From contig NC_079881.1 of NCBI RefSeq assembly GCF_029227915.1, positions 14,233,501 through 14,297,500 of the forward strand: a DNA stretch of 64,000 nucleotides, given 5' to 3'. This DNA is from Hydractinia symbiolongicarpus (Eukaryota; Cnidaria; Hydrozoa; Anthoathecata; Hydractiniidae). A model generated the notes under the pieces. That model had not been told where the DNA came from, did not search any database, and was given only the letters and a program-made list of their open reading frames with translations. Shown here in pieces: positions 37,433 to 45,864 of the stretch (the stretch's first letter is position 1; the number at the start of each line of letters is the position of its first letter). The translations under genes and the position numbers were made by a program.

Positions 37433-37540
37433 TGTTAATTATTTATGTATTTTTAACACGTGACTCTTAAAGCCACGTGTGACGAATGTGATGTAGATGT
37501 ACAGAAAATATTTTGTTGATATAAGACACGTTTTCATGAG
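37433..37540 (+). repeat. 5' LTR, first part
   Basis: First 108 bases of the 130-bp LTR. It contains two CACGTG palindromes (about 37459 and 37473) separated by ACTCTTAAAGC. It ends with ATGAG, the target site that was duplicated when the hAT element jumped in. The last 22 bases of the LTR follow the hAT at 42657-42678. Confidence 0.92.
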
Positions 37541-37599
37541 CAGGGGCGGATCCAGCATTTGTAACATGTCAGTCACTTTTTTTGCGAAGCAAAAAACGG

Positions 37600-37690
37600 C
37601 GCAGCAATTTGCTGCGCCCAGAACAGCTGTGGGTCCTGGGGGGCGCTGTAAGCCCCCCATGGGGGGTCCGGGGCGCAGCCCCGGAAACTT
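37600..37690. repeat. GC-rich hairpin near the hAT 3' end
   Basis: Very GC-rich island in an AT-rich region. CCTGGGGGGCGCTGTAAGCC, then CCCCATGGGG and GTCCGGGGCGCAGCCCCGGA, give at least two strong stem-loops. Subterminal hairpins of this kind are common in hAT elements. It lies about 60 bp inside the left terminus, past the end of the transposase gene. Confidence 0.6.
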
Positions 37691-38254
37691 TCGCTATTTT
37701 GAGCCTCTACGCACTATAAACGGCCTAATTAATGTCCAAATTATTAGCTCTGTTAGAGATGTTTTTTGTTTCGAATGGACAGCAAAATAACAAACAATCT
37801 TGTAAAGGGTTGCAAAAAAGTGTAGGAAAAATAAAAACAACGGTTTAAATTCATATATTTTAAGACTGTTTCGCCCAATATCAGGGCTCGTCAGCATGCC
37901 TAGGAAACAGCTAATAACGTAATATTAGCTATTCCAGACATGGACAGTCTGCTCCAATCAACCGAGTGCTATCAGCTGGAGCAAGCCGAACTCGGAAAAG
38001 GGGGGGGGGGGTTAAAGAAAAGGAATTGATATAAAAATAGAAAGTTATTAAAGCCCCTGACAGGGGGCTCCTAGAACAGGTACTATCAGCCGGAGCAAGC
38101 TGAACCTGCAGAAAGATAAAGACACAACGTAAACAAGAGGAAAGGGAATTTATTTTATATAAATGGTTACTATTTTTTTCAATTAGGAGTGGGTAAGATT
38201 TAATTATTTATTTATTTATTCATTAATTTGTTCTAGATTGTATAGTGGAAAAAT

Positions 38255-41200
38255 TTATATTAATTCAAGTCTTCTTTTATCTTTAGCAAATTTATTTAAA
38301 ACTTTATCAACATCTGGCACTATTTCTTTGTGAATATACATAAGCGCTAGCCCGTTGAGGCGTTCAGATACCATAGTAGTGCGAGTATAATTTTTAAGTT
38401 TTCTCATAGCAGAGAAAGAGCGTTCACATTCACATGTGGTGACAGGAATAGTGGCTAAAATTCTTAGGGCCACATGCAAATTAACAAAGACATTTAGATT
38501 AATAGACTTCAACGTTTGAGCAATAGTTTGGGGTCTATTTCCTTTAAAATCAATCCAATACTTCTCCCAAATTTCTAATTCAGCATTAAGCCCAAGTATA
38601 TTTGGAAGGTCATCTTCATAGAAAGAGACAAAAGACTTGAATTTCTCCTTCCAGTTTGTTTTACCTCCAGAAATCAAAGAAACCATTTTTGCTGGAACAA
38701 TGCATAGGCCATTATAAGCATTTAGAGAAAACAGTTGAAAACGATTCTTCATTTCACTATTTAAATGGTCTAAAAGAGGATTAGTAACTGATTTTTTATA
38801 GTAATCAGAAGTTGAAAAAGAAGGATGATTATCTCTTGTGGTTTGCCTTCCAACAGTCCTTTTCTTCTCCTCCACAATTCCTACTTTTTCACAAAGAGAA
38901 AGAGCCTCCTCATACCACCTATCATGAAAATGTTCCACATTATTTCTGGTTTGAAGGAGAACATTTTTTAATGTTTGAATAAGCTCTATGCTGTCCATAA
39001 CATCAATTGTTCTATTTTGTAGCAATTGAGTAACTGGAAGTGTTATGTCAAATACGTTCCTTGTGATCACCAGAGTGACAAGAAATTCAAAATTAGCTAT
39101 TTGGTGAAAAAAACCAACAGCTTGTTTTGATGTGTCATAATTGAACTGCCGATTTAAGTTTAATTTCATCTCTTCCAAAGTAATATAAATAGGCACATAT
39201 AACTCTTGAAAGAGATCTAAACCAGTAATTCGTTCAACCCACCGAGTACGGCAAACATCCTTTAATTTAGTTTTTTTAGAAGTCGGACTATATTTATCTA
39301 TGTTAATCATAAGGGATTGCTGTCTTTTTTGAGAATAGTTAAAGAAATAGGAAATGTGTTTTATTTTAGCCATCACATGGGCAACTAAGCTGATTGTACA
39401 AGATTTTCCAACTGCTAAATTTAAACGATGACTGTTGCAATGAACATATATAGCCTTTTTATTTAAATTAAGAATATGGGCAGAAAGTCCATTCTTATAC
39501 CCAGCAACAGCACCTGCACCATCATATGCTTGACCCCGACAATCCTTAATATTTAAAGTCAGGTTATGAAGTGACTTTAAGAGAACAGACTTCAAGTCTT
39601 TACCTGCCAGCCCCTCATCACGATGAATATATTGAACAAACTCCTCACGTATATTCAAATTACTGTCAACAAAACGTAAAACTAAGGACATTTGCTCTTT
39701 ATTAGATAAATCAGCAGCTTCATCTGCCAGAATAGAAAAGAAAGTGTTTGATTTTACTTCTTGGATTATTTCATCTAAAATTACAGATCCACAACAGTTG
39801 ATTAATTCATTCTGGGTAGTTTTAGAAATGTATGTAGCATTTTTGGGACAAGTTTTAAGATGGTCAGCAAGAGCTGTATCTCCACCTTGTACTCTAAAAT
39901 TCAAAAGTTCAACAAAATTTCCTACCCGACCACCAGAAAATTCTCCTAATTCACCATGATATTGTGAGTCATCACGGTGACCTCTTAAAGCATGCCCTTG
40001 TCTACCAGAGTAAATAATGGCCTGAACAATTGGTATCAATTTCTTTCTGTTCTCAGTAATTTTCTTCTGATGGTTAGTATCAAGAAGCACATCAATCGGC
40101 TGAGAATTACCAAAATAGTTAGCCATAAAACTAGTAAACGTAGCAGATGTGTAAGCATGAAGGCCAGTACTTGACTCATGTTTCACAAAGTTGGCACAAG
40201 CATCAGGCCAGTACTTAAAAGGTTCAGAAAACAGTTTTTTAATTTTACTTAATTTGGAAGAAAACTTGTGTCCAAACAAAACACATGGCAGACAATAAGC
40301 TCCATCAACCTTGGGTGAATAACATAACCAGGAAAACTTTGTTAACCACTCAAAACGAAAAGACCTATTTGTTTTCGGAAATTTATAAGAATGATCAGGT
40401 TTATAAACATTTTGGATAAGTTCATGAACTTTTAATGGATCATCCTTTATTTGAAAAACTTTATCTGTGTAATCTGAGACATCAAAATAAGTTTGAGGAT
40501 AGTTTAAAGATGAACACAGAGGATGACTAGTAGTTGTGTCTGGTGCATTGGACAATGCACTATCACAAACAACAGTATCTGAATTAACTTTACTACTACC
40601 AGCAAAAGGAGGCATGGAAGAAACATCAACAACAGTTTTGTGCTCCTCTTTTATTTGGGGTAAGTCTTTTTTCTTACAAGTAGGCAAAATAAGTTTGTCG
40701 CTGCGCTGGTCTGTCCAAAACGACAACTTTGATTGTACCTTCCCATCTTTTGGGAACAAACAGGGTTTTTTAGACTGCGGCAAGATTTTTTTGGAATGTT
40801 GAATTAGTTTCCTTTTGGTACCATTAGGAAGAAATAATACTGGCACAAAATGGTTGGCTTTAAAAGTCTGACCACATTCTGCATGAACACCTTGCAGACA
40901 AAACAAAATATGAGCATCAGTAACTTTATCGTTTAATGATGTAAACATGGGTTCAATTTTGCAGTTAAATAAAAGTTTATCTCTCTCATCACCACAGTCA
41001 GGGAAATAGGAAAAGATGTTTTTTAATGTTACCGTAGACAAAGCAAACATGCACAGCAAACTACACCAAGTCTGGTTAGTACAGTTCAAAACAGCTTCAT
41101 TTCTCACAAAGTCTATTGGTGTTACACCAGTTTCAGTTGCAGAAAAAGACATGCTCATATGTAAAATACAATTAAAAGATTTAAATGACTTACCTTGATG

Positions 41201-42135
41201 TTTTTCATAGCAAGAAACTAAAACAGGATGCTTACTATATACCTCAGGGTGAAGAAAAAGTTCTAACGAAGTTAAATGTCGCAGCTCGTCAACCAGTGTG
41301 TTGTCGCCAACAAGAAGCAGGGACATGGAGCTGTACAAACAATTCCCAGTGGCTTCAGAACTAAAACAAGAAAGGAAACTACATGCATGATTAACCATTA
41401 TGTCACAACCATTTACAAACTTATTTTATTCAACGAAAAAGTAAATTGTCAAAACTAACTTCACATTCATGCAAATATTAATTTAAAAGCTAATCTAGAT
41501 AAAGAATACATAGCCACACTTCAAAATGACACTCTAAATGTTCTTAAAAGCCTGTGGTTTATTTACTATATATATATATTTACTTCATTGGTTCAACTTT
41601 TTTACAGTTTAGCTACTTAGCTAGGCTATAGTTATTAAATCAAATTTAAAAATATATTTAAATATTATATGTTATTATTGCAATATTATAACAAAAAATC
41701 TTGTACACAACAGCATGAACATGATCCTTTTAATCTCTAGCTAGCTACTTTGTTTTGCCGAAATTCTTTTGAATCAAAGCTATTAAAACAATTATGCAAA
41801 AGATCATTTGGCAGATGGCCAAAGAAAACAACTTTGAATGGCCTATTAAATAATTTATTCAATATATAAGTGTTTAAGATAACAAAAGAATATTATTTAT
41901 CTCACCACAAAGCAATTGCAGAACTCCCTGGGTCTTTCCTCCACAATAACTTTGGAAAATAAACCTCTGCATTAAAATTTCGAGATATTGTTCCATCGTT
42001 TAAGCTTTGGTAAAGATCTTTGTGACACAAAGATTTGATTTTTTTTAATGATTTCTCATAGATTTCTTGCATATACAAAAAATTATTACTTCTCATTTCA
42101 GCACGTATTCGGTCAAACATGTCGTAAGTCGCCAT
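38255..42135 (-). CDS. OTU-like / ZMYM-type / DUF4371 hAT transposase (two exons)
   Basis: Exon 1 is 41906-42135 (ATG of MATYDMFDRIRAEM); the intron is 41361-41905 (GTGAG...TTTTAG); exon 2 is 38255-41360. Joined length is 3,336 bp, about 1,111 residues, no interruptions. Across the junction the reading is ALCSEATGNCLYSSMSLLL. GNCLYSS resembles the nucleophile loop of OTU cysteine proteases and NHFVPVLF (about residue 265) its His motif, so residues 80-270 look OTU-like. A TTF/ZMYM-type zinc-binding segment follows near residues 410-445 (FSWLCYSPKVDGAYCLPCVL). Next is the DUF4371 hAT core with ILADEAADLSNKEQ and CRGQAYDGAGAV, supplying likely catalytic Asp residues. Last is the hAT dimerisation region CECERSFSAMRKLKNYTRTT. 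Cut-and-paste transposition is its expected role. The OTU function is unknown. Confidence 0.9.
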
Positions 42136-42194
42136 GCTTTCTATCGAAAAGAGAAACAATACGCCCTGATCACCCATTATAAAGTCCTGCATGC

Positions 42195-42305
42195 TTTCAT
42201 TTGGTCCGAAAAGCCTTTGATTGCTTTCATTTGGTCCGAAAAGCCTTTGATTGCTTTCATTTGGTCCGAAAAAGCTCACCTAATTGCTTTCGTTTGGTCC
42301 GAAAT
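42195..42305. repeat. 30-bp minisatellite in the hAT 5' region
   Basis: Unit GCTTTCATTTGGTCCGAAAA plus GCCTTTGATT, three near-perfect copies and a diverged fourth (GCTTTCGTTTGGTCCGAAAT). Located upstream of the transposase ATG, between it and the right TIR. If the open frame were read further upstream it would encode FGPNESNQRL repeats, but an internal Met at 42135 is the better start. Confidence 0.75.
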
Positions 42306-42678
42306 TTTAATTACACGGTATCGGTTTATGAAAGCTTTAATTATTATAAGAAAATACAGGCTGAATCACACTTCGAATACCGTAAATATTGGGTCAAAGT
42401 CGTCAGTTTTTGTAAACCAATCAGAATACGTTATTTCGGCCGGCAAGCCAATCAATTTGCATGAACATTCTTCGGATGTCAGTCGCTTTTTGCCGTATCC
42501 ATCAACTCAGTCACGGAAGAGGAAGGTCCGTAAAATAAAGCTCAACGGACGCAGGGCCTGCGGGATCACAGTACCCTATTATTTTTTACGACTCTTAGTA
42601 AAAATTATGTCAGTCGCGTGACGGCGCTGACGTACACTGGATCCGCCCCTGATGAGTTCCTTTTTACGAGATATTACA

Positions 42679-42695
42679 TGGTCAAACCGAGCCGG
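42679..42695 (+). promoter_or_regulatory. Candidate tRNA primer-binding site of the BEL element
   Basis: TGGTCAAACCGAGCCGG follows the 5' LTR end (TTACA) directly. Primer-binding sites start with TGG, the complement of tRNA 3'-CCA. I did not identify which tRNA would pair. Confidence 0.5.
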
Positions 42696-42929
42696 ATAGT
42701 TTTGATATCATTTATACGTTATTTATTAAATTATTTATTATATTAAAAAAGGAAAGAAGACGTGGTTGTGTGTGTTAGAAGAAACAGAGTATTATTTATT
42801 TTGAACGTATTATAAACAAACATGTTGCCTTTGGAAAAGAAGTTAAGAATAAGAAACACGTTAGTAAAAAAAAAAAAAAAATAATAAAAAGAAATAAAAC
42901 CTTGTTATGAACATTATCACGAAGAAAAA

Positions 42930-44379
42930 CTTACGTTATTGCAAACGTTGAACACTACGATAGAGAGCAAACTTGGAAAATTTTTAAGTATTACGGAAGA
43001 GATTTCCGAAATTATTGAAGAGGAAGATCATCTAATAAAAGATGCTCAAGAAAGTAGTGACTTTGAAGTACGGGTAAGAAATGAACTGCTAATACTTGAT
43101 CGTTTCCTAAAATAAAAACAAGATAGAAGTGACACAGTCAGTACGAGGTCAGTTAGTGCTTCAAGCTCTATTAAACTGCCAAAAATTGAAATAAAAAAAT
43201 TTGATGGCGATCCAACTAATTGGTTTTCATTTATTGATTCTTTTGAAGCAGCAGTTGACAAAAACGATCACTTGTCTAATGTTGAAAAAATGAATTATTT
43301 GTTAGGATTTGTTGTTAAAAACTGAGTAATGATAATTATGAGATTGCTTTAAATTTGTTAAAAGATCGCTTCGGAGATCCGCAAATGATAATTTCAGGAC
43401 ATATGAATAAACTATTAAACTTGGAGCCTGTCATGGCTATTTCTGACGTTCGTAATTTACGCCAATTGTTCGATATAACTGAGGCGCAAGTGCGTAGTTT
43501 ACAATCTTTAGGAGTTCAATCTCAAAACTTTGGCTCAATGCTTATACCTGTGTTATTGCAAAAACTGCCAGGAGAATTGCGTCTGATTATTAGTCGCCAA
43601 CTTGGAAAAAACGCATGGAAAGTAAGCGAGGTAATGCAAGCTTTTAAAACTGAATTAGAAGCGCGAGAAAAAGTTTCAACCGGTCAGGAGGAAAGCCCTT
43701 GTTTTTCTGGTGCTTCCCTTTATGTTGGAAATCGACGGAATTTCGATGCGAAAGAAAGAAAATGTGCTTTTTGTGAAAACCCAGGGCACAAACCGCAATT
43801 TTGCTCTATTGTTTCCAAACCGACTGCGCGCTCTTCCATTTTAAAAAGGAAAGGATTATGCTTTTATGTCTACAGTCAGGCCATGTAGCAAGACACTGCA
43901 CAGTTAGATGGAAATGTTTTAAATGTAAGGGACGTCATCATGTGTCTATTTGCAATAAGGGTAATCGAGACCAGGATAGCAATGATCAGAATGAAGGTGA
44001 GGGAACTTCAAATAACGTGGCGAATACTGAATGTGATTTTAACACAGTTTTGTTACAAACTGCGTCTGCGGAAATTTTTTCTGATGATAAAAACTGTCAC
44101 AGGTTTAGAATTTTGTTTAATAGTGGCAGTCAAATGTCATACATTTATCCGCAAGCGGCGGAAAAATTGAAATTGAAAACAATCGACAAAAAACAAATGT
44201 GTCTTAAAACGTTTGGAGGAGCTAAACAAAACAAAACTTTGGACATGGTTAGATTTACCGTTAAAACAAAAAATGACGAAGAAAATATTACGGTAAACGC
44301 GTTCGTATCCGAAATATGCTATCCTTTGACAAACCAAAACATCGAGGGTGCAAAATCTAACTACCCTTCAAGTGGTTAA
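42930..44379 (+). pseudogene. BEL/Pao gag and aspartic protease (frame-broken)
   Basis: Gag-like reading starts near 42940. PKIEIKKFDGDPTNWFSF (about 43180) is the DUF1759 signature. After a stop near 43322 the frame continues 43337-43888 with NLLKDRFGDPQMI and LLQKLPGELRLIISRQLG. A zinc knuckle CAFCENPGHKPQFC follows, then a shift near 43860, a second knuckle CFKCKGRHHVSIC, and the DUF1758 protease region with FRILFNSGSQMSYIYP. The usual catalytic Asp-Ser/Thr-Gly is changed to Asn-Ser-Gly, so the protease would be inactive. The frame ends at 44377, where the polymerase should begin. Confidence 0.8.
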
Positions 44380-44399
44380 AACTGTTTCAATGGAAGGTC

Positions 44400-45734
44400 C
44401 AGAATAACAAGAATTTTGAAGTAGAAAAAGTGAAACTTGGTCTTTTTAAGAATGACGATGGATTTCTGCGATGTAAAGGTCGTGTACAAAATTCACCTTT
44501 TACCATACGACACTCGGCATCCAGTGTTTTTACCTACACAATGTGAGCTTTTGCCTCTTATTGTTTCGGATTCACATCGTGCTGTTAGTCATAATGGACC
44601 ACGTGACACTCTTTGTCACGTGCGTAAACAATTTTGGATACCGCGTCTCAGACAAGTTGTTAGAAATTTATTACGTAACTGTACATTGTGTAAAAGATTT
44701 GAAAGTAAAGCGTTTACTTACCCAAGTACTTCTGCGTTACCTGATTTTCGTTTGTCGTTGAACTTTGCCTTCACTATTGGAATCGATTATGCAGGTCCGT
44801 TGTATATACGAGATATTTATTCACGTTCTGATGTACATAAAGCGTGGATTTGTTTGATTACTTGTGCTAGCAGTAGAGCTGTTTATTTGGATATTAGTAC
44901 TGATTTGTCTGCTTCAGCTTGTGTTAATGTTTTAAAACGTTTTGTAAATAAAAATGGAGCTCCGAAAGTTATCAACTCAGACAATGGTTCTAACTTTATT
45001 AGTAAAGAAGTTCAACATTTTACATCATCACATGGCATTAAGTGGTGTTTTAATATTGAAACTGCCCCCTGGCAGGGTGGATATTTCGAAAGGATAATTC
45101 AGTCTCTTAAACGTTGTTTGAAAAAAGTACTTTTTAAAACTTTAGTTGATTATGAAGAGATGTTGACTATTTTCTCAGCAATTGAACGCATACTTAATAA
45201 CCGTCCTTTGACGTTTATTTACGACGATGTTAACGAAAGTCCATTAACTCCGAATCAATTAATATACGGAAAAAACGTTAGTATCGATTATGAAGAATAC
45301 GATGGCGAAAAAAGTGACGAGTTGACAGTTCGCGCGAAGTACATAAAATCTGGCTCGATCATTTTTGGAAACGTTGGTTAAATGAATACGTTGTCGATTT
45401 ACGCGAATTTCACAAACAGAAGAAGAAAAAGCTACAGTCCTCTTACGAAATTGAAGTAAACGATGTTGTTCTTATACACGATGATGTTAAAACTAGAGCA
45501 AAATGGAAGATAGGTCGAGTAACGGAATTGTTGAAAAGCAAGGACGCTCGTATACGTGCAGCAAAGGTATTAGTCGCAACTAACAACAATCGTAAAACGA
45601 TAATTACACGCACTTTGAACAAACTTTATCCTGTTGAACAGTCTGATCGCGACTACGAGAATGACAAGGAAGATAACGACGAAATTAAAATTGACTTTAT
45701 AAACGAAGATGACATCATCGTTTTTGGTGGGGAG
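44400..45734 (+). pseudogene. BEL/Pao integrase and C-terminal domain (frame-broken)
   Basis: A long open segment, 44437-45381, carries the zinc-binding HHCC-like part (H..AVSHNGPRDTLCHVRKQF, then RNCTLCKRF) and the DDE core. The catalytic triad is visible as Asp in TIGIDYAGPL, Asp in INSDNGSNF and Glu in GYFERIIQSL. A frameshift near 45360 moves into the DUF5641-like tail (DHFWKRWLNEYVVDL onwards), which stops at TAA overlapping the start of the 3' LTR (45737). Upstream the reading begins inside the RNase H/integrase linker (FKNDDGFLRCKGRVQNS), so the polymerase and RNase H have been deleted. Confidence 0.85.
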
Positions 45735-45864
45735 TGTTAATTATTTATGTATTTTTAACACGTGACTCTTAAAGCCACGTGTGACGAAAGTGATGTAGAT
45801 GTACAGAAAATTTTTTGTTGATGTAAGACACGTTTCCATGAGTTCCTTTTTACGAGATATTACA
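45735..45864 (+). repeat. 3' LTR of the BEL element
   Basis: 130 bp, TGTTAATT...ATTACA. It differs from the 5' LTR at four positions (about 97% identical). It is preceded by the purine tract GGTGGGGAG and followed by AAAGC, the second copy of the target duplication. Confidence 0.92.

What the first reader, a model, noticed from the sequence alone, without database searches (positions are those of the whole stretch)
37541..42651. Apparently intact hAT with an OTU-like protease domain and a 5-bp target duplication
The gene has two exons with good splice sites, joins to about 1,111 codons without a lesion, and the TIRs are perfect: a candidate for a still active element. The N-terminal GNCLYSS / NHFVPV pair suggests an OTU-type cysteine protease fused to a ZMYM/DUF4371 hAT transposase. 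The target duplication is 5 bp instead of 8.
Basis: partly seen in the sequence, partly recalled or inferred. Interest (0 to 1): 0.78.

Follow-up and report, generated by a model that had tools for sequence, protein, structure and literature searches.

The report
Jumping gene with built-in ubiquitin protease
This is a complete, apparently recent hAT "jumping gene" in a colonial hydroid whose transposase carries an extra domain folded like a ubiquitin-removing enzyme, a fusion that could show whether mobile DNA tampers with the host's ubiquitin signals.

The parts
37541..42651 (-). complete OTU-hAT transposon (gene on minus strand), 5,111 bp
   Evidence: 15-bp perfect TIRs, TSD, empty site
37541..37555 (+). 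terminal inverted repeat, gene 3' side
42637..42651 (-). terminal inverted repeat, gene 5' side
37536..37540 (+). target duplication ATGAG, first copy
   Evidence: single copy at the empty site 45838-45842
42652..42656 (+). target duplication ATGAG, second copy
41906..42135 (-). exon 1 coding part, ATG at 42135; N-terminal arm of the OTU domain, motif RNxxAE (Asn53 at 41977-41979)
   Evidence: the same arm is modelled in P0002
41361..41905 (-). intron, 545 bp, GT..AG
   Evidence: same position and phase in the second family L021/L022
38255..41360 (-). exon 2 coding part including stop
40817..41360 (-). exon-2 part of the OTU-like domain: Ser78 (41357-41359), Cys84 (41339-41341), His247 (40850-40852)
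38258..40486 (-). transposase part after the linker (from residue 369): DUF4371, D623, D690, C718xxH721, W784, E1056, dimerisation region
   Evidence: Pfam; Hermes fold match for P0002; motif positions; catalytic roles assigned from recalled Hermes work
37566..37574 (+). ATGTCAGTC, candidate transposase-binding motif 26 bp from one end
   Evidence: same place in 10 of 10 copies displayed
42607..42615 (+). ATGTCAGTC, same motif 45 bp from the other end; a further copy at 42476-42484
   Evidence: also in the 3 other copies scanned for it
37578..37684 (+). four consecutive palindromes (DNA hairpin potential) at one end
   Evidence: fold z -3.08; no useful covariation, innermost one missing in some copies
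42192..42304 (.). 30-bp tandem repeat, 3.7 units, upstream of the start codon
37433..37540 (+). left LTR of the host retrotransposon, first 108 bp (continues at 42657-42678)
45735..45864 (+). right LTR of the same retrotransposon = empty site, 126 of 130 identical, one ATGAG at 45838-45842

Best explanation
The element is a complete cut-and-paste DNA transposon of the hAT superfamily, with the 5-bp target duplications that define the hAT5 group. Its transposase is a fusion: an N-terminal OTU-type cysteine-protease domain (residues about 25-258), a linker of about 110 residues (disordered in the model of a relative), then a Hermes-like RNase H transposase with a dimerisation part. SHOWN: termini, 5-bp duplication, empty site, open two-exon gene, OTU fold (model), Hermes-like fold (model of a relative), Cys and His invariant where covered, purifying selection on both domains, and related families in one genome. 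INFERRED: the transposase binds the ends (possibly ATGTCAGTC), excises the element and inserts it with a 5-bp stagger, while the tethered OTU domain, using an A20-like active site (Cys84, His247, and Asn53 or Ser78 as third residue), removes ubiquitin in cis from the transposase complex or from chromatin/repair proteins at the donor and target sites. This would keep the transposase from being degraded or the break from being signalled.
Against: No experiment shows catalysis or mobility. The Asp of the canonical DGNC loop is Thr here and is absent in 11 of 11 readable rows of the 36-row clade that holds the window. Position His+2, acidic or Asn in many OTU enzymes (recalled), is Val in all 30 rows. 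The third-residue assignment is extrapolated: the A20 alignment is weak (E 0.035) and ends 9 residues short of the Asp70 counterpart, the window has Asn there, and its spacing to the Cys is 31, not 33. Pfam does not call OTU in the full window protein even at E 10. Foldseek E-values for the OTU model are modest (best 3.6e-4) with low TM-scores (0.26-0.48 by query length in the 50 rows shown). dS is near saturation, so dN/dS is approximate. Of the window family only one copy was seen with both ends and an open gene; L010 has a stop at codon 952 and L011 lacks one end.
Confidence: 0.6

Rival explanations
1. The OTU part is a catalytically dead pseudo-protease kept as a ubiquitin- or protein-binding module that tethers the transposase to ubiquitinated chromatin or repair factors.
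For: Canonical loop Asp lost: 0 of 11 readable rows of the window's clade have it; His+2 is Val in all 30 rows; the OTU part evolves faster than the transposase (dN 0.338 against 0.159).
Against: Cys and His are invariant wherever covered (14 of 14 and 30 of 30 rows), and the counterparts of both candidate third residues of A20 are conserved where seen; dead enzymes usually lose such residues.
Confidence: 0.27
2. The OTU domain is a self-processing protease that cuts the linker and releases an independent transposase.
For: Long low-confidence linker between the two folded parts (residues 259-386 of P0002).
Against: OTU enzymes are isopeptidases (established knowledge); the linker diverges fastest of the three parts (dN 0.566).
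Confidence: 0.06
3. A host gene derived from an old hAT (ZMYM-like, as the RefSeq names suggest) rather than a mobile element.
For: RefSeq names such as 'zinc finger MYM-type protein 1-like'; purifying selection.
Against: Perfect TIRs, TSD, empty site, insertion inside a retrotransposon LTR, and several near-identical dispersed copies.
Confidence: 0.02
4. The 5-bp duplication is coincidence and the true duplication is 8 bp.
For: hAT elements usually make 8-bp duplications (PMC12730594, passage).
Against: 0 of 13 end pairs has 8 bp, 11 of 13 have exactly 5; the empty site shows one ATGAG.
Confidence: 0.01

Closest known systems
hAT5 group (Kapitonov and Jurka 2007, Repbase Reports; not seen, only as cited in passages of PMC12730594 and PMC9004415)
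   Same: hAT transposase with 5-bp target duplications, found in some invertebrates and fish; PMC9004415 lists a Hydra element under hAT5
   Different: I could not see whether published hAT5 proteins carry an OTU domain; a word search of PMC9004415, PMC12730594 and PMC12220107 for OTU gave 0
Hermes (hAT superfamily, solved structures)
   Different: Hermes makes 8-bp duplications and has no OTU domain (both recalled); about 14% identity
Ginger1 and Helitron proteins with OTU domains (PMC2836005, discussion read)
   Same: DNA transposon protein with an added OTU cysteine-protease domain
   Different: Unrelated transposases; OTU at the C-terminus in Ginger1, at the N-terminus here
A20/TNFAIP3, Cezanne and VCPIP1 OTU enzymes
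   Different: Sequence identity about 17%; the loop Asp is missing in the window protein

Membership tests
hAT superfamily | hAT transposase with C-terminal dimerisation region (PF05699) | tested here: met
   2.7e-9, above cut-off; Hermes fold match for P0002
hAT superfamily | short terminal inverted repeats | tested here: met
   CAGGGGCGGATCCAG, 15 of 15
hAT superfamily | usual (not obligatory) 8-bp target duplication | tested here: not met
   0 of 13 end pairs; hAT5 and hAT6 are published exceptions inside the superfamily, so membership rests on the transposase
hAT5 group | 5-bp target duplication | tested here: met
   11 of 13 end pairs exact; empty site
hAT5 group | phylogenetic place with published hAT5 transposases | not testable with these tools
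   Repbase sequences are not held
OTU cysteine proteases | OTU fold | tested here: met
   predicted models against solved structures
OTU cysteine proteases | detection by Pfam PF02338 above its cut-off (a threshold rather than a defining trait) | tested here: not met
   window piece 13.3 against 23.3 bits, full protein not listed at E 10; the relative P0038 carries a precomputed PF02338; hence 'OTU-like'
OTU cysteine proteases | catalytic Cys and His | tested here: met
   Cys84 and His247; 14 of 14 and 30 of 30 rows
OTU cysteine proteases | third catalytic residue | tested here: inconclusive
   loop Asp replaced by Thr; A20-type counterparts Asn53 and Ser78
OTU cysteine proteases | deubiquitinase activity | not testable with these tools
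   needs an assay

The most novel reading that the evidence does not exclude
A lineage of hAT transposons, shared at least by hydrozoans and octocorals, carries an active A20-type deubiquitinase in cis with its transposase and uses it during transposition to strip ubiquitin from itself or from the host's break-repair or silencing machinery: a mobile element with its own ubiquitin editor, of which complete copies from two families survive in one genome.
Probability: 0.35. Interest if true: 0.68.

Novelty: new variant of a known kind. Interest (0 to 1): 0.5.

Why it matters
OTU and Ulp1 protease domains were noted in several DNA transposons and it was proposed that they act in transposition (PMC2836005, discussion); I know of no decisive test (recalled, not searched for). 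A compact transposon with its ends, gene, empty site and a second family defined in a colonial hydroid (a genus used in the laboratory, recalled) gives a clean test: transposition with and without the active-site cysteine. It also shows that hAT elements with 5-bp duplications can carry the domain.

Tried and rejected
Hairpins at one end as a conserved structure: strong single-strand fold, but the alignment of 10 copies shows a both-sided change at only 1 of 33 predicted pairs, and the innermost hairpin is missing in some copies that do have exact TSDs, such as L020 and L026; rejected as evidence of function.

Profile search of solved structures with A2 found only a low-complexity match; single relatives with the canonical loop did better. 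Relatives in viral contigs: none confirmed among 51 pattern matches. Genome contigs: one distant hit (L001, 24% identity, in a record titled Candidatus Poribacteria), probably eukaryotic contamination; not pursued.

Paper searches for OTU together with hAT: held no paper; one search held one (PMC5148889, on fungal Helitrons, listing only, not opened); held 940 and 935 papers with two of three terms, of which 12 and 10 were listed and none was about a hAT with an OTU domain. The library lacks Repbase Reports and most subscription journals, so this is not proof of absence.

Number of OTU-hAT families in the genome: the planned protein search did not complete, so the count is open.

The tree used 43 of 56 proteins in hand: 11 were set aside beforehand (mostly fragments or remote hits) and two lacked the cutting motif (P0045, P0047); it is rooted at the midpoint. 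L039 is counted among the 13 end pairs although its second end is probably a chance match.
Full report
WHAT IS THERE. Between 37541 and 42651 lies a 5,111-bp element with perfect 15-bp terminal inverted repeats and a directly repeated ATGAG on both sides. Its gene runs on the minus strand: ATG at 42135, exon 1 to 41906, a GT..AG intron of 545 bp (41905-41361), exon 2 to the stop at 38255; 1,111 codons without a lesion. The start and the intron are supported by the relative P0002, a RefSeq protein of Hydractinia symbiolongicarpus that by eye starts at the same place and whose gene is split at the same place and phase. The nearest protein, P0001, 99% identical over 74% of the query, is from the same species, and its contig length equals that of contig C1 of the genome in which the window lies, so the host is that species or very close.

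THE EMPTY SITE IS IN THE WINDOW. The element sits inside a 130-bp sequence (TGTTAAT..ATTACA; 37433-37540 plus 42657-42678) that recurs uninterrupted at 45735-45864 with 126 of 130 bases identical and one ATGAG. Between them lie a DUF1759 frame, an aspartic-protease-like frame (below Pfam's cut-offs) and an integrase frame, and the pair is flanked by AAAGC on both sides: these are read as the two LTRs of a BEL/Pao-like retrotransposon (family name from general knowledge of DUF1759). The hAT therefore landed in one LTR after the retrotransposon did, and the other LTR records the target before insertion. The 5-bp duplication is thus read directly.

OTHER COPIES. A whole-genome search found 76 matching stretches (a lower bound, since 40 of 401 candidates were scored). 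I fetched 39 stretches. In 13 places two ends could be paired (11 within one locus, plus an outer and a nested element read across L012 and L013). Eleven of 13 have an exact 5-bp duplication (ATGAG, AAATT, AATAT, CTGGT, CCAGG, GCAAC, TGTTA, AGTTA, AAAAC, TTCAC, AAGAT); L027 has 4 of 5 bases (GTACC/GTATC); L039 has none, but one of its ends is probably a chance match. None of the 13 is longer than 5. Random 5-mers agree at 0.0020. The remaining fetched places showed only one recognisable end, or none, in the stretch taken.

AGE AND INTACTNESS. L011, on the same contig 1.7 Mb away, differs by 4 mismatches and one single-base gap over 4,994 aligned bases and encodes an identical protein, but lacks 116 bp with one end; L010 is complete at both ends and 99.4% identical, but has a stop at codon 952. 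So the window copy is the only one I examined in its family with both ends and an open gene; of the other partial copies I did not read the gene. A second family, 72-73% identical to the window over the matched first 2,888 bases, holds L022: 5,005 bp, both ends, TSD CCAGG, an open 1,134-codon gene, 99.3% identical to L021, which encodes P0002. A third, more diverged OTU-hAT is nested in the C1 copy (frames with SGNCLFSS and HNHYVP) with its own 5-bp duplication. Recent movement is likely; present activity is not shown.

ACTIVE SITE. Cys84 (14 of 14 rows) and His247 (30 of 30) are invariant where covered. The canonical Asp three residues before the Cys is Thr here and Ser, Thr, Asn or Ala in 11 of 11 readable rows of the 36-row clade that holds the window; it is Asp only in P0036 and P0038, which lie outside that clade, while P0035, also outside, has Asn (14 of 43 rows readable). 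P0036 aligns without gaps to A20 across the cysteine loop (E 0.035, residues 64-109). Extrapolating that register by 9 residues, its D55 falls on A20 Asp70, and its T82 on Thr97, the two candidate third residues named in PMC10284599 (one passage seen). The counterparts are a motif R[DN]xxAE, found in 7 of 56 proteins (Asn53 in the window; spacing to the Cys 26-33; how many of the other 49 cover that stretch was not counted), and Ser/Thr in 12 of 12 rows (Ser78). I infer an A20-like active site; this is the weakest structural step.

SELECTION. Window against P0002: dN/dS 0.16 over 171 OTU codons, 0.081 over 744 transposase codons; dN 0.338 and 0.159, and 0.566 over 102 linker codons. dS near 2 (beyond estimate in the linker) is saturated, so the ratios are approximate, but the OTU part is clearly constrained.

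ENDS. ATGTCAGTC stands 26 bp from one end in 10 of 10 copies shown, and in the 4 copies scanned (window, L022, L024, L026) also 45 bp from the other end and once further in, including the second family: a candidate transposase-binding motif.

HOW IT PROBABLY WORKS. hAT chemistry (excision, strand transfer with a 5-bp stagger) by residues D623, D690 and E1056 (roles from recalled Hermes work). The tethered OTU domain most likely edits ubiquitin at the complex or on chromatin and repair proteins; a dead binding module is the main rival.

AGAINST THE KNOWN. 5-bp duplications define the hAT5 group (PMC12730594 and PMC9004415, passages seen). In Hydra, hAT5 is among six TE families with expression specific to some cell populations (PMC12220107, passage seen); whether those copies carry OTU is unknown to me. 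OTU domains are known in Ginger1 and Helitrons, with a suggested role in transposition (PMC2836005, discussion read). Searches showed no report of an OTU-hAT fusion among what was listed; the library lacks Repbase Reports. Named carriers of the fusion here are Hydractinia, Hydra and Dendronephthya, an octocoral; a Xenia protein without a DUF4371 call has the cysteine loop and the RNxxAE motif. I rate it a new variant of a known kind.

Noticed in passing
window 37433-45864: BEL/Pao-like LTR retrotransposon with 130-bp LTRs (126 of 130 identical) and AAAGC on both sides; the three frames of 180 aa or more between the LTRs outside the hAT match DUF1759, aspartic protease (weakly) and integrase, none reverse transcriptase.
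   Followed up: partly
L012:4726 to L013:3178: A different, diverged OTU-hAT element of 4,454 bp is nested in the intron of the C1 copy of the window family, with its own 5-bp duplication AAGAT.
   Followed up: partly
window 37578-37684: Four consecutive palindromes at one end of the element, kept in part in related copies; the innermost is missing in some duplication-flanked copies.
   Followed up: partly
window 42192-42304: 30-bp tandem repeat just upstream of the start codon that keeps a reading frame open upstream of the ATG.
   Followed up: no
L024, L025, L026, L033: Shorter (2.1-2.6 kb) derivatives sharing both ends and 5-bp duplications, probably non-autonomous passengers of the same transposase.
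   Followed up: partly
L017 and L018: Two stretches about 58 kb apart on contig C10 with the same partial copy and the same 12-bp flank, suggesting a segmental duplication.
   Followed up: no
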